Shown: positions 23,084-41,542 of the stretch, in pieces | Numbering within the stretch: position 1 is the stretch's first letter | How the letters are laid out: every line of letters starts with the position of its first letter | Source: Ignavibacteria bacterium | GTDB taxonomy: Bacteria; Bacteroidota; Ignavibacteria; Kapaibacteriales; UBA961 | DNA length: 48,171 nucleotides | Direction: 5' to 3' | Assembly: GCA_016873735.1 (NCBI GenBank) | Contig: VGWD01000018.1 | Location: forward strand, 1-48,171 | Notes under the pieces: generated by a model | Told to the model about the DNA's origin: nothing | The model's database searches: none | The model's input: the letters and a program-made list of their open reading frames with translations, nothing else | Translations under genes and position numbers: made by a program

Positions 23084-23176
23084 ATTTGACTTCACCACAT
23101 TGTTTCATAGTCAAGAAATTATCACGACGAAAAGAACCATAAAAACAGAAGATACACTTGCAAAAGTTAGAGGCAA

Positions 23177-28506: not shown

Positions 28507-29646
28507 ATGACAATCATACCTGCACTTACCGGAATACGAGCTTTGGCTGCAGGTGCTGTCTTTTTCGGTCATGTATTCCAGCAACATCATCATGAAGTTT
28601 TGCCCATATTCAAATATGGCTGGATGGGTGTCAATATGTTTTTTGCATTAAGTGGGTATCTATTTTATCATTTATATGCAGATTCAATTGAAGACCATTC
28701 ATTTTCATGGAGACGATATCTTTCAAAGAGATTCATCAGAATTTATCCTCTCACGATATTTGTTACAGTATTAACCATTGCGATCTCTCCATCGACCTTT
28801 GAATTTTTAGATATACTCTCTCATTTGACATTGTTGCACGGCTTTATCCCGGATTATAGATTATCACTCAATACTCCCATGTGGACATTGACAGTGGAAC
28901 TATGTTTTTATCTTATAGCACCGATATTGATTACATATGTAACGGCTTTGTACAGAGAAAAAACAAAAGGCATACAACAGGCGGGTACATTGTCTGCAAA
29001 TTCATTCATTGTCTTATTTGCACTAGCTCTATGGGTTCTCATCGTAGCTAGTTGCAATGGTTTCACTCAATTTTATCAGAATATCACTTTTTTCTTTACC
29101 GGGTACTGGGATAAGGGCGCAGGTACGCTCACCATCTTCGGAAGACTTGATGATTTTTTTGCAGGAATGTTGATTGCAGGTTATGGCAGAAGCATCAAAA
29201 AAGTATTCGTGAAAGGTGACGTATTGGTATTGCTTGGAGCCATTATCATGGGCTCGGCTTTGACTTTCACGGAAATGCAAGGTGGCTCTGATTTGGTAGG
29301 CAAGCATAAATTATCTGATTTCGTATATCCTTCTCTTGCGCTTGGCTCTTCAATCATCTATTTGGGATTGCATCGAGGTGGATATATTGCCAATATTCTG
29401 TCTTCACGTTTCATGGTATTGCTTGGCAATATATCTTTTGGACTATATCTCATCCACTTCATCACATTGCCCGGCTATGCTCAGGCAGCTTTGGAAACAC
29501 AAGTATACATTGAATCAAAGGGATTAGGGATTACATTTTCGGGTATTCTGAATTATGTATGCTATTCCGTCTTGGCTTATGCATCATATCTTTTCTATGA
29601 AAAACCAATAGGTATATTCTTATCAAAACGCATGTTATCAAAGTAG
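28507..29646 (+). CDS. membrane acyltransferase family 3 (OafA/YrhL type)
   Basis: A 379-residue integral membrane O-acyltransferase with about ten hydrophobic segments. The family motif is at the N-terminus: LTGIRALAAGAVFFGHVF, with the conserved arginine and catalytic-site histidine ten residues later, followed by GWMGVNMFFALSGYLF and the RRYLSKRFIRIYPL motif. TPMWTLTVELCFYLIAPI is also conserved. Such enzymes add acetyl or other acyl groups to surface sugars, LPS or peptidoglycan from the cytoplasmic acyl-CoA pool. It lies 31 bases before the first of three secreted-protein genes, and 109 bases after the kinase. Confidence 0.93.
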   Translation: MTIIPALTGIRALAAGAVFFGHVFQQHHHEVLPIFKYGWMGVNMFFALSGYLFYHLYADSIEDHSFSWRRYLSKRFIRIYPLTIFVTVLTIAISPSTFEFLDILSHLTLLHGFIPDYRLSLNTPMWTLTVELCFYLIAPILITYVTALYREKTKGIQQAGTLSANSFIVLFALALWVLIVASCNGFTQFYQNITFFFTGYWDKGAGTLTIFGRLDDFFAGMLIAGYGRSIKKVFVKGDVLVLLGAIIMGSALTFTEMQGGSDLVGKHKLSDFVYPSLALGSSIIYLGLHRGGYIANILSSRFMVLLGNISFGLYLIHFITLPGYAQAALETQVYIESKGLGITFSGILNYVCYSVLAYASYLFYEKPIGIFLSKRMLSK

Positions 29647-29665
29647 GGATTTCAATTTTCGACGA

Positions 29666-29670
29666 GGGGG
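29666..29670 (+). promoter_or_regulatory. G-run ribosome binding site
   Basis: GGGGG, 7 bases before the ATG at 29678. It can pair with the 16S anti-SD CCUCC with one G-U wobble. The next gene has the same element. Confidence 0.55.
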
Positions 29671-29677
29671 TAATTTC

Positions 29678-31540
29678 ATGTATCAATATTCCAGTCACCG
29701 GACTGTTGCTGTGTCCACTCACATCTACATTTTCCTTATCTCATTGTTATTGTGTGTAATGAGCCGTATATCGGGTCAAACTCCTCCCTATTCTTGGGGA
29801 TTCTATCATCGTGCTGAACCATTGGTGAATGCTCATCCGCATGATTATTTTCATGCAACAGGAGAACAAATGCCATTTTCAGGCATTGGAGCTTTTTCCA
29901 TTCAACCAAGAAGCATACTTCCAAAAACACTATTTCATCTATATGCTTTTCATGATGATATCACACATCACTTGAATGGTCATTCGGCAGTACTGCGATT
30001 GCAAACAGCCGGCAAGTCAACAAATGAAAGACCCGAGCATAAAACTTCTTCAATAGAATTCAGAGTGGGAGAAATTTCACATCCCTTTGGTTTGGAGGAG
30101 CAAGTATGTGCATTGCAAAATGTGGAGTCAAGTCGAAAAGTCGGTTCATCACATGCATTGCCAAAGCAACGTGGATTATCCATTTCCGTACAGAAACAAG
30201 GAAAATCAGGCACAGAGCAAGATGGCATGCTCGATGCATTATATGTATTCTCCGAACGCAGAACCGGGTTGATGGGTCAGGCACTGAATGAATGGTATCC
30301 TAGAATCGGCATTGGCAATGCTCAACCACTCGAACATCTTCAACTTGGAAGCAAATTTACATTTCATGCCGGTGGGGCCAGCAGAATTGGTGATAATATC
30401 TATTATGACATGCATGAACAACAATCAAAACGCATAGTGCATGGGGCTGCCTCATCTATTGGCATGCATCAAGGAAGCATCATCTTAAGTAATGCATTAC
30501 CTGGAACAATAAGCGAACCGGTCAGTTTTGAATGGGGTGACATACATACATTGCGTGGAATAGAAATAGATTCCCATAATGGCATGAGCATTGGAAAGCG
30601 ATATCCTCAAACAACATTGGATATCATGTCGAGAACTAGTGATGAACAATCCGGAGCCCTAAGAATTCAAAATAGCAATCATTCCACTTTATTATATCTC
30701 ACTTCTCACGGATCATTGGGAATTTACAATGCACAGCCAAAAGAACGAGTGCATATAGGTGAAACCTTCACGATTCATGCTGGAGGGGCCAGCGTGCTTG
30801 GTGACAATGTCTATGTAGATTCAGTGCCAAAATCAATTCAATCCGGCAGAACAGCATCATTGATCTTCCAAGATGGATTGATTCAATTAGCCAATACTGA
30901 TTCGAATCCTGCAAATAGTCAAATCTCATATCGATCACTCCCTCTGCAAGACAATACAGTCCGAGGATTGATCATTGAGAATAAGCAAGGACATTGCGGA
31001 ATTGGCATAACATCACCCAAAGCAAGACTGGACATACTTGCAACTCCGCTTGATACATTCTCTCCGGCATTGAGAGTTGCAACAATTGACCAAGAGGCGT
31101 TTTTCACGGTCAATGGACAAGGAAATGTTGGAATAGGCATTCCGGACCCAAAACATATGTTACAAGTTGCCGGAAATGTCATGATCGGAAAACAATGGAA
31201 TGATGCACCCGAATGTTCTGCAATCGAACATAAACTAATTGTTGATGGCGCAATTATCGCAAGAGAATTACTGATTACCAGTGATTATTGGGCAGATGAA
31301 GTATTTGAAGATTCATATCAATTGATGACATTGCACGAATTGGAACGCTATATCAAGACAAATAAGCATTTACCGAATATGCCCACCGAATCAGAGATTC
31401 ATGATTCAGGGATGAATGTCTCGAAAGTCACGGTTGCATTATTGAGAAAAATCGAAGAATTGACATTACATGTACTCACGTTGAACAAAGACATTGCCAG
31501 AATGAATAGCATCATCGATACATTACCATTCAATGATTAA
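29678..31540 (+). CDS. secreted stalk-like protein with tail-fibre-type repeats
   Basis: A 620-residue exported protein (hydrophobic leader about 17-35, then SGQTPPYSW). It holds tail-fibre-like repeats of the GIG-x-x-x-P-x-x-x-L-x-I type (RIGIGNAQP, LGIYNAQP, CGIGITSP, VGIGIPDP), each followed by ALRI/ALRV, and two near-identical 34-residue blocks carrying HAGGAS and GDN. The C-terminus (YWADEVFEDSYQLMTLHELERYI, in part) with a final coiled coil IEELTLHVLTLNKDIARM matches the end of common Bacteroidota surface proteins related to phage tail-fibre chaperone domains, which probably trimerise. No catalytic motif is visible. No T9SS tail is evident. It stands 11 bases before a T9SS propeller gene. 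Confidence 0.8.
   Translation: MYQYSSHRTVAVSTHIYIFLISLLLCVMSRISGQTPPYSWGFYHRAEPLVNAHPHDYFHATGEQMPFSGIGAFSIQPRSILPKTLFHLYAFHDDITHHLNGHSAVLRLQTAGKSTNERPEHKTSSIEFRVGEISHPFGLEEQVCALQNVESSRKVGSSHALPKQRGLSISVQKQGKSGTEQDGMLDALYVFSERRTGLMGQALNEWYPRIGIGNAQPLEHLQLGSKFTFHAGGASRIGDNIYYDMHEQQSKRIVHGAASSIGMHQGSIILSNALPGTISEPVSFEWGDIHTLRGIEIDSHNGMSIGKRYPQTTLDIMSRTSDEQSGALRIQNSNHSTLLYLTSHGSLGIYNAQPKERVHIGETFTIHAGGASVLGDNVYVDSVPKSIQSGRTASLIFQDGLIQLANTDSNPANSQISYRSLPLQDNTVRGLIIENKQGHCGIGITSPKARLDILATPLDTFSPALRVATIDQEAFFTVNGQGNVGIGIPDPKHMLQVAGNVMIGKQWNDAPECSAIEHKLIVDGAIIARELLITSDYWADEVFEDSYQLMTLHELERYIKTNKHLPNMPTESEIHDSGMNVSKVTVALLRKIEELTLHVLTLNKDIARMNSIIDTLPFND
30308..30409 (+). repeat. 102-bp in-frame repeat, copy 1
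   Basis: Encodes the block starting GIGNAQPLEHLQLG and containing FHAGGASRIGDNIYYD. It aligns without gaps to the copy at 30719-30820; the nucleotide spacing between copies is 411 bases. Confidence 0.8.
30719..30820 (+). repeat. 102-bp in-frame repeat, copy 2
   Basis: Encodes the block starting GIYNAQPKERVHIG and containing IHAGGASVLGDNVYVD. Divergent second copy of 30308-30409, within the same protein. Confidence 0.8.
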
Positions 31541-31545
31541 GGGGG
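31541..31545 (+). promoter_or_regulatory. G-run ribosome binding site
   Basis: GGGGG directly after the stop codon of the stalk-like gene and 6 bases before the ATG at 31552. Same type as at 29666-29670. Confidence 0.55.
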
Positions 31546-31551
31546 AATATC

Positions 31552-32949
31552 ATGAAAGCGCGCTTACTGTTTTTGACCGGACTTTGCTTATTCTTTCAAT
31601 CCGGTAGGGCTCAAATATACTATTGGGATATTTCTTATGGGAAAAACTTGATTGGTCCGGAATCTGCTCCTGCGGCCATGGCAATCTATGATGATGCATT
31701 GTATATAGGCGGACAATTCAGACGACTGAATAGCAATACACAGGACATATTGCAAACCGGATATATCGCATTCATGAAAAATGGAAAATGGAATGGCCTT
31801 AATGGCGGCGTGAATGCTCCCATTACTGCAATGTGTAGCGGTTCGAATTCTATACTCCATACAGCCGGTCCATTCTCAAGATGCATCGATGCTCAATTGC
31901 AAGGCATCGCTTCATGGAATGGAATGCGCTGGTCTGCAATCAAAGGATTATCGGCAGGAAGCATCAATGCACTTATCACTCATGATAATATTCTGTATGC
32001 CGCCGGAATATTTGATACAATAGGACATGTTCCTGCTGCTTCAATCGCGGCATTGATTCAAGGAGAGTGGCATCCGTTAGGACATGGTTTTAAAAAAACA
32101 AAGATGAATCCAACGTCAAATCTGCTACCGGAAATCAAAGCACTTGCAAAACATAATGGCTACATATATGCCGGAGGGGATTTTGATACCGCCGGGATTA
32201 TACCGGCGCAAAATATAGCATACTGGGATGGAATTCGATGGAACAGCATGGGCCCCGGAATTCAGGGTGAAGTAGATGCCATAACCGTACTCAATAATGG
32301 TCATGTGATAGTTGCATCAACAATCACAAAAGGCAATGTAATTTTGCCCGCAAATCTAATGTCATGGAATGGGAATAAGTGGAAGGAGCTTGGACTTCCA
32401 CCGGGATGTATTTCCATCAATGCACTCGAAACAGATGGCAGACAGATTTTTGTGGGAGGTGATTTCATCATGGATTCAACACGCAATGACTATGGTTTGG
32501 CGATATTGGATGAATCTGGTTTCAGAAGCTTGGGGGGAGGTGTAAGAGGAATCATCACAAAATTGCTGTATGACAATGGCACATTGTATTGCGCAGGCAA
32601 CTTTCTTAGAGTAGCAGATTCGATGGCTTGCAGAAATGTAGCCGCATATGTGTTTGAACAAAAAGCAGAACCAAACAAAAGCACATCAACATCTATTTCT
32701 ATATATCCAAACCCAAATCAGCAAGATTTTGTCTCTATTTCTTTCAAATTGGAAGATGCCGGACAAGTTGAATTATGTCTTACAATGACAGATGGAAGAG
32801 TATTGGAATGCTTCGCTCAAGGAAAATATGAAAAAGGAATCCATGAAATCACAAAGGTGCTTCATGATGGAATTCCATCGGGTCATTATCAGTGCATGTT
32901 GAAACATAATGGACAAATCATATCGGTGCCAATGAACATCATACATTAA
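31552..32949 (+). CDS. secreted beta-propeller protein with T9SS type A sorting tail
   Basis: A 465-residue protein. Signal peptide (MKARLLFLTGLCLFFQSGRAQ) is clear. The body has repeated blades of the pattern YIGGQF / YAAGIF / YAGGDF / FVGGDF / YCAGNF, each followed after a variable stretch by IA-x-W-x-G-x-x-W or a similar strand (GIASWNGMRWSA, NIAYWDGIRWNSMG, NLMSWNGNKWKELG). This is a propeller family common in secreted proteins of Bacteroidota. The last 80 residues are a T9SS type A sorting domain (SISIYPNPNQQDFV, IPSGHYQCMLKHNG), so the protein leaves by T9SS. It lies between the stalk-like and phospholipase-like genes, 11 and 14 bases away. The ligand is unknown. Confidence 0.88.
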   Translation: MKARLLFLTGLCLFFQSGRAQIYYWDISYGKNLIGPESAPAAMAIYDDALYIGGQFRRLNSNTQDILQTGYIAFMKNGKWNGLNGGVNAPITAMCSGSNSILHTAGPFSRCIDAQLQGIASWNGMRWSAIKGLSAGSINALITHDNILYAAGIFDTIGHVPAASIAALIQGEWHPLGHGFKKTKMNPTSNLLPEIKALAKHNGYIYAGGDFDTAGIIPAQNIAYWDGIRWNSMGPGIQGEVDAITVLNNGHVIVASTITKGNVILPANLMSWNGNKWKELGLPPGCISINALETDGRQIFVGGDFIMDSTRNDYGLAILDESGFRSLGGGVRGIITKLLYDNGTLYCAGNFLRVADSMACRNVAAYVFEQKAEPNKSTSTSISIYPNPNQQDFVSISFKLEDAGQVELCLTMTDGRVLECFAQGKYEKGIHEITKVLHDGIPSGHYQCMLKHNGQIISVPMNIIH

Positions 32950-32963
32950 TCAAGGGAACATAT

Positions 32964-34757
32964 ATGTTTGGATTGTACAGCAATAAGAGCTTTGCATGTA
33001 TTTGCATTTTCGTATTCTTCTGTTTCATGAAACAAAACATGCTTGCTCATAAAGAACCAACACATCAATACATCATCAGAGAAGCATATGCTTTATTGAA
33101 AAAACATATTGGTACATCAATCCCTGAATTCGACACCTATATACTCGGATTGAATGGTCTTGGACGAGAAGGAGAATTTGATGATGGACATGTGAATCCA
33201 TGGTCATATACAACCGTGTGTGGCGGAGCATGGAGTGAAGATCATCATGATCCTGTGCGGAATATGCATGAGATTGAATTACTCTTCAGAAAAGGCATGT
33301 TTACAAGCATCAATCATTTTTGGGACCCTGATAACCATGCAAACGGTTTCAATAATCAATTTGAATTACATCTGCCATGGAATCCATGGCCTACAGGAGT
33401 TTTGGAATGGAATGCATGTTCACTTGCCAGAACATATCTCTCTGATTATGAACATGATTTGATGGCATATAAAAAAGCAATGATCTATCTATCAAGCAAA
33501 GACTATTCACCTCGTTTGCATGAAACATTCACTATGCATCATAATGGCAAGGAATATCCTTCACCGGGTGCATTTAATTTCTCGCTCTTTGATTGGTATC
33601 ATGGAAACTTCTCCTATGATGATGATGGTATTGAATCAAGAAAAAAAGAATTCATCTATTCAATCATTGGGAGGATTGTACATTTGCTTGGAGACATGAG
33701 CATTCCAGCTCATGTGAAATGTGATGAGCATGGTCTTTGGCATGATCCATATGAAGATGCAATGAATTATGTTGAATGGGAAGGAAACAAAGAATCTCCG
33801 TGCATAGACATGGATAAAAATATCCCGGCTTCACCACAAAGAGTTGAATTTTGGGATCATGAAAAAGTCTTTTCTGAAAAAGGTTCCATCGTACTTCCTT
33901 CATGCACCATGTTTACAGAGAATCCTTATTGGACATACTTTTACAGCATGGCACAAATCTCGGATCACTTTGCAAGCAACCGCTTTAATGGAGATGATGA
34001 ATATCTACCTATAGGCGAAATCGCATCAATCATCAATTCTTCCGAGAATGGTCCGACAATCACACATTTTATTAATGGACTGCCGGAACTTAGCGGATAT
34101 GCTAGAGATGAGTCACAACTCAATGCCATTCGAGACATGACATTCCCTTATGTGATAAGGGCAACAGCAGGATTGCTTTACAATATTGCATTGGAATGTG
34201 CATTGATAAATCCAAAAGGATCGCGATGTCCTACAATGCTTGCAATCAATAATGGAATCTTGAATGCCCCTAGATATAGATTTGAAGCTTCCGACAGCAT
34301 CATTGTTGGAGACAAAGTTCGACCGCTATTCATCTCATCATCTGCGGGACCGATACAATTCAGAGCCGGAAAAACCATACGATTCGTTCCTGGCATGCAT
34401 GCTCGGTCCAAATCTACTGTCCATGCTACAATTGAGGAATGCACAAATTGCTATGATGATCCTCCAGGACAATTCATAAAACAAAAGAATGAACATGTTA
34501 TTGAACTAAGTCCGGAATTTGATGTCCTGTTTTCGTGGAATAATCAAAGCATAAGCAATTGCTGCATGTCCGACCCAATCATTTCTTTGACTTGCATGAA
34601 TGAAAAGGAACAAACAGTCTATGCTTCATCAACCGGTGATTTAATTTCCGAACAAGATATCAATGAGTGGATTCATACCCAACAGAGCGGACTTTACAAG
34701 ATTCACCTTGAAAGCAAAAGAGGAAGAAAAGAGATAAGAGTCATAGCTAGATTATAG
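32964..34757 (+). CDS. zinc phospholipase C / P1-nuclease-like secreted protein
   Basis: A 597-residue exported protein. The early AHKEPTHQYIIREAYALL (H29, H34) and the central HLLGDMSIPAHV (H240, D244, H250), followed by CDEHGLWHDPYEDAM, resemble the metal-binding helices of zinc-dependent phospholipase C and S1/P1 nucleases (H-x-x-x-D and later H). The region about 435-500 (FEASDSIIVG, IQFRAGKTIRFVPGMHARS) looks like the 3-coathanger stack module of Bacteroidota secreted proteins. Substrate (phospholipid or nucleic acid) is undecided. GGG lies 7 bases before the ATG. The gene ends the four-gene unit and overlaps radA by 6 bases, tail to tail. Confidence 0.72.
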   Translation: MFGLYSNKSFACICIFVFFCFMKQNMLAHKEPTHQYIIREAYALLKKHIGTSIPEFDTYILGLNGLGREGEFDDGHVNPWSYTTVCGGAWSEDHHDPVRNMHEIELLFRKGMFTSINHFWDPDNHANGFNNQFELHLPWNPWPTGVLEWNACSLARTYLSDYEHDLMAYKKAMIYLSSKDYSPRLHETFTMHHNGKEYPSPGAFNFSLFDWYHGNFSYDDDGIESRKKEFIYSIIGRIVHLLGDMSIPAHVKCDEHGLWHDPYEDAMNYVEWEGNKESPCIDMDKNIPASPQRVEFWDHEKVFSEKGSIVLPSCTMFTENPYWTYFYSMAQISDHFASNRFNGDDEYLPIGEIASIINSSENGPTITHFINGLPELSGYARDESQLNAIRDMTFPYVIRATAGLLYNIALECALINPKGSRCPTMLAINNGILNAPRYRFEASDSIIVGDKVRPLFISSSAGPIQFRAGKTIRFVPGMHARSKSTVHATIEECTNCYDDPPGQFIKQKNEHVIELSPEFDVLFSWNNQSISNCCMSDPIISLTCMNEKEQTVYASSTGDLISEQDINEWIHTQQSGLYKIHLESKRGRKEIRVIARL

Positions 34758-40084: not shown

Positions 40085-40765
40085 ATGAATTTCATCATCA
40101 CGCTTTGCATCATTACCCTTTTCGGCTTCTCGGAATCAATGGCTCAACCCAAGCTGGAAGTCATTGGAGGAAGTACATATGATTGGGGAAAAGTCCCATT
40201 TTCAAAAGGGCCTCTGAAAGGTTCCATCAAATTGAAGAATACCGGCAATCAACCATTGAAAATAAACGAAGTAAAGCCGGGATGTGGCTGTACTACAGCA
40301 CCATTGGACAAGAAATATCTTAAACCGGGTGAGTTTGCAACCATGAATGTCACGCTTAATCCGGGATCAAGCTCAGGTGAATTGGTCAAGGGTTTAACCA
40401 TATCAAGCAATGACCCCAAAGTCCCCATTAAAGCCGTAACACTCAAAGCATATATCATCAAACCAATTCAAGTATTGCCTCAGCCCTATATTGCGATCCC
40501 GCAGTCCAAAGTTGGGACAAACTCTGATGCAACCATAACTTTGAAGAATACAACCGACATTCCAATCAAAATAACCCAATTCATTCCATCCAAAGGAATT
40601 ACGGTTCTTTCAAAGGCCAAGAACATACCTCCGGGAGGTCAGATTACGGTTCCAATTCGTGTGAAACCAACAGCGAAAGGGTATTGGAATGGCTCAATAA
40701 CGTGCAAAACCAATCATCCCGATCTGGCCGAGATGGATGTGATTGTCTATGGCAATGCTTTGTAA
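40085..40765 (+). CDS. DUF1573 domain protein, paralog 1
   Basis: A 226-residue exported protein (signal peptide to SESMAQ). DUF1573 is an ASH/MSP-like beta-sandwich; the diagnostic motif PGCGCTTAPLDKK follows KNTGNQPLKINEV, and TISSNDPK is the other hallmark. A second, degenerate copy of the fold (residues about 125-225) has ITLKNTTDIPIKI and ends KTNHPD. The CGC pair may form a disulfide or bind metal. It is a tandem paralog of the next gene, with 13 identical residues around CGC. Function is unknown, periplasmic or surface. Confidence 0.92.
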   Translation: MNFIITLCIITLFGFSESMAQPKLEVIGGSTYDWGKVPFSKGPLKGSIKLKNTGNQPLKINEVKPGCGCTTAPLDKKYLKPGEFATMNVTLNPGSSSGELVKGLTISSNDPKVPIKAVTLKAYIIKPIQVLPQPYIAIPQSKVGTNSDATITLKNTTDIPIKITQFIPSKGITVLSKAKNIPPGGQITVPIRVKPTAKGYWNGSITCKTNHPDLAEMDVIVYGNAL

Positions 40766-40787
40766 TTCTGGATTTTCCGTATTTTTG
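40759..40787 (+). promoter_or_regulatory. promoter for the second DUF1573 gene
   Basis: TTTG at 40759-40762 (overlapping the stop of the first DUF1573 gene), 17-base spacer, TATTTTTG at 40780-40787. It suggests the second paralog can be transcribed on its own. Confidence 0.5.
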
Positions 40788-40834
40788 AATAATTTATTTT
40801 TCCGGTTTTTCACCGTTTAAAGACAGGTGCACAC

Positions 40835-41542
40835 ATGAAACGATATACCGCTATATGCTTGGCTCTGCTTGTTTGCGCAGGGACATTTGCATTTGCACAA
40901 CCCAAAATCACCATCATTGGTGGAGATACACAAGATTGGGGCAAAGTAAAACCAAAAGATGATCCTTTGAAGGCTACAATCAAGATCAAGAATGAAGGCA
41001 ATGAAATGCTGAAAATAACTGATGTTCGTCCCGGTTGTGGATGTACAACAGCTCCACTTGACAAAAAAGAACTCAATCCGGGTGAAATGGCATCGATGGA
41101 TGTCACATTGAAACTTGGAGCAACTTCCGGCATGATGACAAAGAGCATCACAATCAGCAGCAATGACCCTCAAAATGCTACAAAGGTCTTATACCTTAAA
41201 GCTGATGTGGTCCGTCCGATTCAGATTCTTCCCACACAATATTTCTCATTTGGAGAAATGACTGTTGGGACAAAGTCCGAAGCGAAGCTCATCATAAAAA
41301 ACACTTCAACTCAGGAAATAGTATTGTCCGACTTCGAGACTGTTGCAGGAATCAGCTTGAATTTAACGAAACCAACAACCATTCCGGGTGGCGGAGAAGT
41401 TGAACTCATCGCAAAAGTAACACCGAATGAAAAAGGATATTTCAATGGTGTGGTTAAAATGAAAACAAATCACCCTGACTATTCTTCTCTGGACATCATT
41501 GCTTATGGCAATGTGAAACCATCAGTGGTAGACCCAAAGTGA
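40835..41542 (+). CDS. DUF1573 domain protein, paralog 2
   Basis: A 235-residue exported protein, signal peptide ending FAFAQ. Same architecture as paralog 1: KPKDDPLKATIKIKNEGNEM in part, PGCGCTTAPLDKKELNPGE, ITISSNDPQ, then a second sandwich (FSFGEMTVGTKSEAKLIIKN) ending MKTNHPDY. The shared VIGGSTYDWGKV/IIGGDTQDWGKV start shows a tandem duplication. A bidirectional terminator follows. Confidence 0.92.
   Translation: MKRYTAICLALLVCAGTFAFAQPKITIIGGDTQDWGKVKPKDDPLKATIKIKNEGNEMLKITDVRPGCGCTTAPLDKKELNPGEMASMDVTLKLGATSGMMTKSITISSNDPQNATKVLYLKADVVRPIQILPTQYFSFGEMTVGTKSEAKLIIKNTSTQEIVLSDFETVAGISLNLTKPTTIPGGGEVELIAKVTPNEKGYFNGVVKMKTNHPDYSSLDIIAYGNVKPSVVDPK

What the first reader, a model, noticed from the sequence alone, without database searches (positions are those of the whole stretch)
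28507..34757. Operon of a membrane acyltransferase and three secreted proteins
Seen: OafA-type acyltransferase, tail-fibre-like stalk protein, T9SS beta-propeller and zinc-phospholipase-like protein with gaps of only 31, 11 and 14 bases. None has an assigned partner. Inference: a secreted or surface-displayed structure with a lipase or nuclease end and a modified glycan, possibly used in attachment, predation or lysis of other cells.
Basis: partly seen in the sequence, partly recalled or inferred. Interest (0 to 1): 0.55.

Follow-up and report, generated by a model that had tools for sequence, protein, structure and literature searches.

The report
Fibre-and-enzyme secretion cassette in Kapaibacterium
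A bacterium carries, side by side, genes for a phage-tail-like fibre and a secreted enzyme; the same pairing, with different enzymes or toxin-like proteins in the second place, recurs in related bacteria, which suggests a shared way of displaying tools on or beyond the cell surface.

Summary
The four genes are real, in order, with gaps of 31, 11 and 14 bases. Their order is kept in the seven Candidatus Kapaibacterium genomes searched, as far as contigs reach. The recurring unit is not four genes wide. The acyltransferase belongs to it only in this genus; five relatives elsewhere have other neighbours. What recurs is a pair: a fibre-like gene followed, on the same strand, by a secreted protein with a '3-coathanger stack' domain (NF045639). 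A fibre lies upstream of 29 of 43 coathanger hits in an order sample against 0 of 39 sorting-domain controls (0 of the 14 from fibre-bearing genomes), and of 16 of 20 in a phylum sample against 0.04 expected. The partner varies: several protease families, glycosidase, phosphatase, RHS/DUF6443 proteins and, here, a phospholipase-C/P1-nuclease-like protein. Coathanger-free relatives of that enzyme have no fibre nearby in 12 of 12 stretches, 11 with enough room to judge: linkage follows the domain. The fibre shaft carries a repeat known from Bdellovibrio prey-binding fibres. Docking, substrate and predation are inferred; a co-evolution test gave no support for docking.

The parts
28507..29646 (+). 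OafA-type membrane acyltransferase (Acyl_transf_3), genus-level member of the cluster
   Evidence: PF01757 80.8 bits; beside the fibre gene in 7 of 7 genus genomes; not beside a fibre gene in 5 of 5 other-family loci looked at
29678..31540 (+). Fibre-like 'stalk' protein, 620 aa, probably trimeric
   Evidence: Hydrophobic signal-like N-terminus (by eye), five capping-loop motifs, two tandem ~137-aa units; C-terminal domain matched in 34 of 119 genomes of the order (rows as counted)
30305..31168 (+). Fibre shaft with capping-loop motifs at residues 210, 303, 347, 440, 484
   Evidence: profile match of fibre C-termini to Bdellovibrio Bd2133 8ond_A, E 1.2e-4
31226..31537 (+). Conserved C-terminal fibre domain ending in a long helix (likely coiled coil); borders approximate
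   Evidence: Alignments A1, A4; AlphaFold2 pLDDT 84.4, pTM 0.69 for the last 165 residues
31552..32949 (+). Secreted beta-propeller with weak T9SS sorting domain
   Evidence: PF12768 35.9 bits; Por_Secre_tail under cut-off; also between fibre and enzyme genes in G072 and next to a fibre in G018
32964..34757 (+). PLC/P1-nuclease-like secreted protein with coathanger domain
33042..34217 (+). Candidate catalytic part: H29, H34, D93, D96, H118, H240, D244, H250, H256, E264
   Evidence: 17 or 18 of 18 rows each
34350..34445 (+). 3-coathanger stack domain
   Evidence: NF045639 at 23.8 bits, under the 26-bit cut-off, in the window; 36.2, 32.3 and 30.5 bits in orthologues of G032, G067, G038; 21.7 in G062

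Best explanation
The cluster is one instance of a modular secreted system. A fibre gene makes a trimeric, tail-fibre-like shaft with a conserved C-terminal helical domain. The downstream gene makes a protein carried out by the type IX secretion system and tagged with a coathanger domain that marks it as the fibre's partner. The partner place is exchangeable; here it holds a zinc-dependent phosphodiesterase-like protein of phospholipase C / P1 nuclease type, probably acting on phospholipid or nucleic acid at the contact site or close to the cell. The beta-propeller between them is likely an accessory binding part. Shown: gene order, linkage, linkage that follows the coathanger domain, exchangeable partners, presence of the SprA translocon gene. 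Inferred: trimer, surface display, physical docking, catalysis, target.
For: A fibre lies upstream on the same strand within 6 kb of 29 of 43 coathanger hits (E <= 0.001, some under the curated cut-off) in 119 genomes of the order; 0 of 39 T9SS sorting-domain controls, of which 14 come from genomes with a fibre (Fisher within fibre genomes 1.4e-6). Phylum sample of 148 genomes: 16 of 20 hits within 8 kb, 0.04 expected; 14 of 15 coathanger genomes have a fibre against 10 of 133 others, Fisher 1.9e-12 (with the three genomes of weak fibre rows kept, 13 of 133, 1.9e-11). Direction: a coathanger gene among the next three downstream genes in 16 of 65 named loci against 1 of 61 upstream. Domain specificity: no fibre in 12 of 12 stretches round coathanger-free relatives of the enzyme, 11 of them with 7.7 kb or more upstream, while coathanger-bearing relatives have one in 7 of 7 cases where the contig reaches far enough. 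Exchangeable partners. Shaft motif shared with MAT fibres. SprA over its cut-off in 7 of 7 genus genomes.
Against: Distances of fibre C-terminus and coathanger correlate no better (rho 0.14) than fibre and sorting domain (0.14), so co-evolution gives no support for docking. Many fibres have no coathanger gene downstream: only 29 of 63 in the order sample and 21 of 80 in the named set do, so the fibre is not dedicated to it; sorting-domain genes of any kind also follow fibres more often than they precede them (23 of 65 against 9 of 61). Hits are not independent: fibres with a coathanger neighbour cluster by descent. The window protein itself scores under the coathanger cut-off. No sorting domain is found on the fibre, so its export route is unknown. 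The enzyme has no significant match to any PLC/P1 family or structure and its predicted structure was poor.
Confidence: 0.5

Rival explanations
1. A shared secretion regulon only: fibre, propeller and hydrolase are separate surface and scavenging proteins expressed together, with no complex. The coathanger is a structural spacer.
For: Sorting-domain genes, with or without a coathanger, stand downstream of fibres in 23 of 65 named loci against 9 of 61 upstream. No co-evolution signal.
Against: Linkage follows the coathanger rather than the enzyme or, in a small control, the sorting domain. In six RHS-type proteins (L125, L128, L146, L150, L160, L177) the coathanger starts within the first 60 residues, so it is not merely a spacer before a sorting domain.
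Confidence: 0.3
2. A contact weapon: the fibre binds another cell and the enzyme or toxin damages it, as in predation or competition.
For: Shaft like the prey-binding MAT fibres; RHS/DUF6443 proteins stand downstream of fibres in Pedobacter and relatives.
Against: No immunity gene or target was looked for; most identified partners are proteases or glycosidases that fit nutrient release as well.
Confidence: 0.15
3. Plain synteny: the four genes stay together because the whole chromosomal stretch is conserved in the genus.
For: Flanking TolC, histidine-kinase and RadA genes are also conserved in order.
Against: The fibre-coathanger pair recurs in 13 genera of the order sample and 12 of the phylum sample, in different surroundings in the loci mapped. 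Synteny does explain the acyltransferase.
Confidence: 0.05

Closest known systems
Mosaic adhesive trimer (MAT) fibres of Bdellovibrio bacteriovorus (PMC10769870; abstract, passages and Discussion seen)
   Same: Beta-helical shaft with the capping-loop motif; a C-terminal domain other than S74, as in the NS74 group; profile match in the shaft
   Different: In MATs the N-terminus is conserved and the C-terminus varies; here the C-terminal domain is the widely conserved part. The parts of the paper seen do not mention a paired coathanger enzyme.
Type IX secretion system cargo, incl. type B cargo with a PorP-like partner such as SprB-SprF (PMC9143113; one Discussion passage seen)
   Same: Secreted proteins with a C-terminal sorting domain; a surface partner encoded next door
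   Different: The partner here is a fibre, not a PorP-like barrel, and the shared mark is the coathanger domain
NF045639 GCX_COOH, 3-coathanger stack domain (NCBIfam)
   Same: The domain near the enzyme's C-terminus
   Different: No paper naming the domain was found in the library searched; its link to fibres is the point made here
Bacteroidetes polymorphic toxins (PMC7073777 and PMC3482391; passages seen)
   Same: Exchangeable effector part on a constant delivery part, T9SS neighbourhoods; PMC3482391 lists tail-fibre repeats within toxins
   Different: Here fibre and payload are separate genes and most identified payloads are hydrolases; PMC7073777 does not contain the word 'fiber' ('fibre' not searched)
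Zn-dependent phospholipase C / S1-P1 nuclease superfamily
   Same: Order of candidate zinc ligands, including H-x3-D-x5-H and a conserved His next to the apparent signal-cleavage site (reference pattern recalled)
   Different: His in place of Trp at the apparent mature N-terminus; last His-Glu spacing differs; no family match

Membership tests
Coathanger domain NF045639 | Score over 26 bits in the window protein itself | tested here: not met
   20.1 bits, 23.8 bits
Coathanger domain NF045639 | Score over 26 bits in same-genus orthologues | tested here: met
   36.2, 32.3, 30.5 bits in G032, G067, G038; G062 at 21.7 is not over it
T9SS cargo, type A sorting domain | C-terminal sorting domain on propeller and enzyme | tested here: inconclusive
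   Propeller under both cut-offs; enzyme no match; clear domains in many relatives
T9SS cargo, type A sorting domain | Secretion machinery in the genome | tested here: met
   SprA TIGR04189 in 7 of 7 genus genomes; other components not searched
Zn-PLC / S1-P1 nuclease | Match to PF00882 or PF02265 | tested here: not met
   own genome without a match
Zn-PLC / S1-P1 nuclease | Ordered set of metal ligands (pattern recalled) | tested here: met
   H29, H34, D93/D96, H118, H240, D244, H250, H256, E264 in 17 or 18 of 18 rows; the last His-Glu spacing differs
Zn-PLC / S1-P1 nuclease | All-alpha PLC fold | tested here: inconclusive
   pLDDT 44.6, not searched; profile comparison E 0.011, probability 4%
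MAT fibre superfamily | Capping-loop shaft repeats | tested here: met
   Five motifs; 8ond_A E 1.2e-4 by profile of fibre C-termini, no hit with the single protein
MAT fibre superfamily | Conserved ~130-aa beta-rich N-terminal domain | not tested
   No Bdellovibrio N-terminal sequence was fetched
MAT fibre superfamily | Trimer | not testable with these tools
   Only single chains can be predicted
Acyl_transf_3 (OafA type) | PF01757 over cut-off | tested here: met
   80.8 bits vs 31

The most novel reading that the evidence does not exclude
A 'fibre plus exchangeable warhead' system spread over Bacteroidota-like phyla: the coathanger domain is a docking tag that mounts proteases, phosphodiesterases, glycosidases and RHS-type proteins on trimeric surface fibres, so that a bound neighbour, prey or particle is digested where the fibre touches it.
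Probability: 0.22. Interest if true: 0.82.

Novelty: new variant of a known kind. Interest (0 to 1): 0.6.

Why it matters
It gives a domain of unknown purpose a specific, testable partner and turns scattered tail-fibre-like genes of Bacteroidota-like bacteria into half of a recognisable pair. If the pair is physical, it is a further route, beside PorP-like anchors, for placing T9SS enzymes, and a simple neighbour rule would predict many more effectors.

Tried and rejected
Four-gene operon as the wider unit: rejected, because acyltransferase relatives in five loci of other families have no fibre, coathanger, TolC or kinase neighbour.

Enzyme family by search: no Pfam or NCBIfam match to a PLC/nuclease family and no credible solved-structure match (one unrelated row at E 0.18). 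Profile comparison with S1/P1 and Zn-PLC-like sets picks the H-x3-D-x5-H stretch but is not significant. The structure model was too poor to search.

Fibre C-terminal fold: Foldseek found nothing at E <= 0.001; its first eight rows are Bdellovibrio fibres at E 0.63 to 2.4. VIA: Z 4.2 at most, for a cohesin helical chain. Phmmer with the whole fibre protein found no solved structure.

Co-evolution of fibre and coathanger: no support. Label clustering on the fibre tree: 24 changes against 34 or more in 200 shuffles, so fibres with a coathanger neighbour cluster by descent, and hits are not independent.

Viral contigs: no enzyme relative; six fibre relatives, mixed contexts. Small proteins lying between fibre and enzyme in other genera: 1 of 9 has a weak, sub-threshold outer-membrane-barrel match. 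Promoter and terminator scan: no more sites than in shuffles, uninformative.

Rows dropped before counts: 9 of 72 fibre rows (shaft-only or second fragments) and 9 of 60 (weak or fragments; this lowers fibre genomes from 27 to 24). The sorting-domain control used 39 rows visible in a truncated listing, 14 of them from genomes with a fibre. In one search four duplicate loci were left out of 80, and loci with under 2.5 kb of room. Of the enzyme matches, the G010 and G017 rows cover only the coathanger end and the G098 row is a short fragment; they were not counted as enzyme genes. The G012 enzyme's coathanger is seen only by the profile built here (E 2.9e-4), not among the NF045639 hits.

Full report
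WHAT IS THERE. Four + strand ORFs lie at 28507-29646, 29678-31540, 31552-32949 and 32964-34757, with gaps of 31, 11 and 14 bases. Upstream are a TolC-like gene and a histidine kinase ending 109 bases before; downstream the convergent RadA-like gene overlaps by six bases. The contig lies in a 2.26-Mb, 99.9% complete genome. A same-genus genome, G070, has a contig of 18,843 bases, the length of JALRHN010000024.1 'Candidatus Kapaibacterium sp. isolate MYJ.27' found by the named scan; I therefore call the genus Candidatus Kapaibacterium.

GENUS LEVEL. In all seven genomes of the genus searched, the acyltransferase and fibre genes are adjacent (gaps 28-31). The propeller follows in six of six whose contig continues, and the enzyme gene is found in five of seven. 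It is contiguous in G000, G038 and G032; in G067 it is cut by a contig end; in G062 it opens another contig, with RadA after it. G065 and G070 gave no enzyme match; they are 86% and 85% complete and their contigs stop at this place. Protein identities to the window run from 33% to 89% for the four genes, while RadA keeps 82-99% in the four relatives that show it: the four evolve fast but stay together. Flanking genes are conserved too, so genus synteny alone proves little.

BEYOND THE GENUS. In other genera the acyltransferase is not at this place, but a fibre gene is followed by a relative of the enzyme with a small gene between (G072, G026, G009, G012; in G072 also a propeller). In G010, G017 and G118 the fibre is followed instead by what read as a subtilisin-like, a metalloprotease-like and a papain-like protein (by eye). 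The common feature of the downstream proteins was the NCBIfam domain NF045639, '3-coathanger stack'.

LINKAGE TESTS. Order sample, 119 genomes: 43 coathanger hits (E <= 0.001, some under the curated cut-off) in 25 genomes were set against 63 of the 72 fibre rows. A fibre lies upstream on the same strand within 6 kb of 29 of 43; of 39 T9SS sorting-domain rows used as control, 0. Only 14 of the 39 controls come from genomes with a fibre; 0 of 14 against 29 of 40 hits gives Fisher 1.4e-6. Several of the 14 misses start at contig ends. Phylum sample, 148 genomes: 20 hits in 15 genomes against 51 of 60 fibre rows: 16 of 20 within 8 kb, 0.04 expected by random placement; 14 of 15 coathanger genomes have a fibre against 10 of 133 others. 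Named set of 80 fibre loci: 21 of 80 have a coathanger gene within 4 kb downstream by a profile built here; counting the next three genes, 16 of 65 downstream against 1 of 61 upstream. Related genomes are not independent, and fibres with a coathanger neighbour cluster on the fibre tree (24 changes, shuffles 34 or more). Still, the pair is seen in 13 genera of the order sample and 12 of the phylum sample (genus labels).

THE DOMAIN, NOT THE ENZYME. A profile of the enzyme's catalytic part found matches in 16 of 296 genomes of the phylum. Twelve stretches from the nine genomes outside the order were fetched; these proteins end in a sorting-domain-like tail (by eye) or are fragments, no coathanger was found, and no fibre lies in the stretch. 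In 11 of the 12 there are 7.7 kb or more upstream; in the twelfth, L204, only 0.6 kb. Coathanger-bearing relatives in the order have a fibre upstream in 7 of 7 cases where the contig reaches far enough (G000, G038, G032, G072, G026, G009, G012; the G012 coathanger only by my profile). G062 and G067 fit across contig ends; G044 and G118 cannot be judged (0.2 and 1.3 kb upstream).

EXCHANGEABLE PARTNERS. Pfam scan of 30 coathanger proteins from fibre loci, of which L103 and L121 lie upstream rather than downstream of the fibre: subtilase 2, thermolysin-like 3, reprolysin-like 5, C10 peptidase 1, trypsin-like 2 (one under cut-off), GH16 2 (one under cut-off), metallophosphatase 1, BNR-like 2 (one under cut-off), DUF6443/RHS 3, BAR-like 1 (under cut-off), only a sorting domain or nothing 8. 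In six RHS-type proteins the coathanger starts within the first 60 residues; in two (L121, L143) it is internal.

THE FIBRE. Five capping-loop motifs at residues 210, 303, 347, 440 and 484 (0.0025 expected in shuffles; pattern written after seeing the sequence) and two tandem units of about 137 residues (alignment score 176, shuffled maximum 57). The motif resembles the capping-loop consensus described for MAT fibres (PMC10769870, passages and Discussion). A profile of fibre C-termini matches the shaft of Bdellovibrio Bd2133 (8ond_A, E 1.2e-4 for the whole sequence), though the window protein alone finds nothing. The last 165 residues are predicted well (pLDDT 84.4, pTM 0.69): a beta shaft, two short helices and a final helix of 35 residues. 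No fold match was found for the tip. Unlike in MATs, the C-terminal domain is here the widely conserved part, found in records named Kapaibacterium, Chitinophaga, Pedobacter and others, a few outside Bacteroidota-like groups.

THE ENZYME. Ten positions stand out: H29 in 17 of 18 rows, and H34, D93, D96, H118, H240, D244, H250, H256 and E264 in 18 of 18. H29 follows the apparent signal peptide directly (by eye). Order and spacing (second His five residues after the first; H-x3-D-x5-H) match what I recall of the Zn-PLC/P1 nuclease family, with His for the usual N-terminal Trp. Family and structure searches do not confirm it, so I say it probably works like that family and do not file it there.

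MECHANISM. Shown: linkage, direction, domain specificity, exchangeable partners, SprA gene in 7 of 7 genus genomes. Inferred: export of the enzyme and propeller by T9SS (weak or no sorting-domain score here, clear in relatives), a trimeric fibre on the surface, coathanger-mediated pairing, cleavage of phospholipid or nucleic acid near the cell. Against: no co-evolution signal, many fibres without a coathanger neighbour, sorting-domain genes in general also more frequent downstream of fibres, no known export signal on the fibre.

NOVELTY. Searches for the coathanger name, NF045639 and DUF6443 found no paper on them (the hits for 'coathanger' were unrelated), and searches joining T9SS with tail fibres, fibre proteins or RHS toxins listed none whose title or displayed abstract start describes this pairing; the library lacks most subscription journals. 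Parts are known kinds; the pairing is the new element.

Noticed in passing
23100-23162: Remnant of a malic enzyme-phosphotransacetylase gene: relatives G062, G065 and G070 have a 760-768 aa gene here, between the ABC ATPase and the Ig-like protein; the window matches only its first 21 codons. Gene loss or assembly collapse; whether a copy lies elsewhere in the genome was not searched.
   Followed up: partly
L146, L150, L128, L160, L177, L125 (RHS-type genes): RHS-type proteins, mostly of Pedobacter and relatives, carry a coathanger near the N-terminus; those of L128, L146 and L150 lie beyond arrays of 2 to 5 fibre genes, that of L160 on the opposite strand.
   Followed up: partly
L135: A fibre gene with a coathanger gene 116 bases downstream in Candidatus Uabimicrobium amorphum, a planctomycete as I recall.
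   Followed up: no
L211-L216: Six viral-collection contigs carry fibre-domain genes; one is followed by an RHS-type gene (L213), one by a coathanger gene with sorting domain (L214).
   Followed up: partly
40085-41542: Two tandem, similar secreted-looking proteins (226 and 235 aa) (by eye).
   Followed up: no
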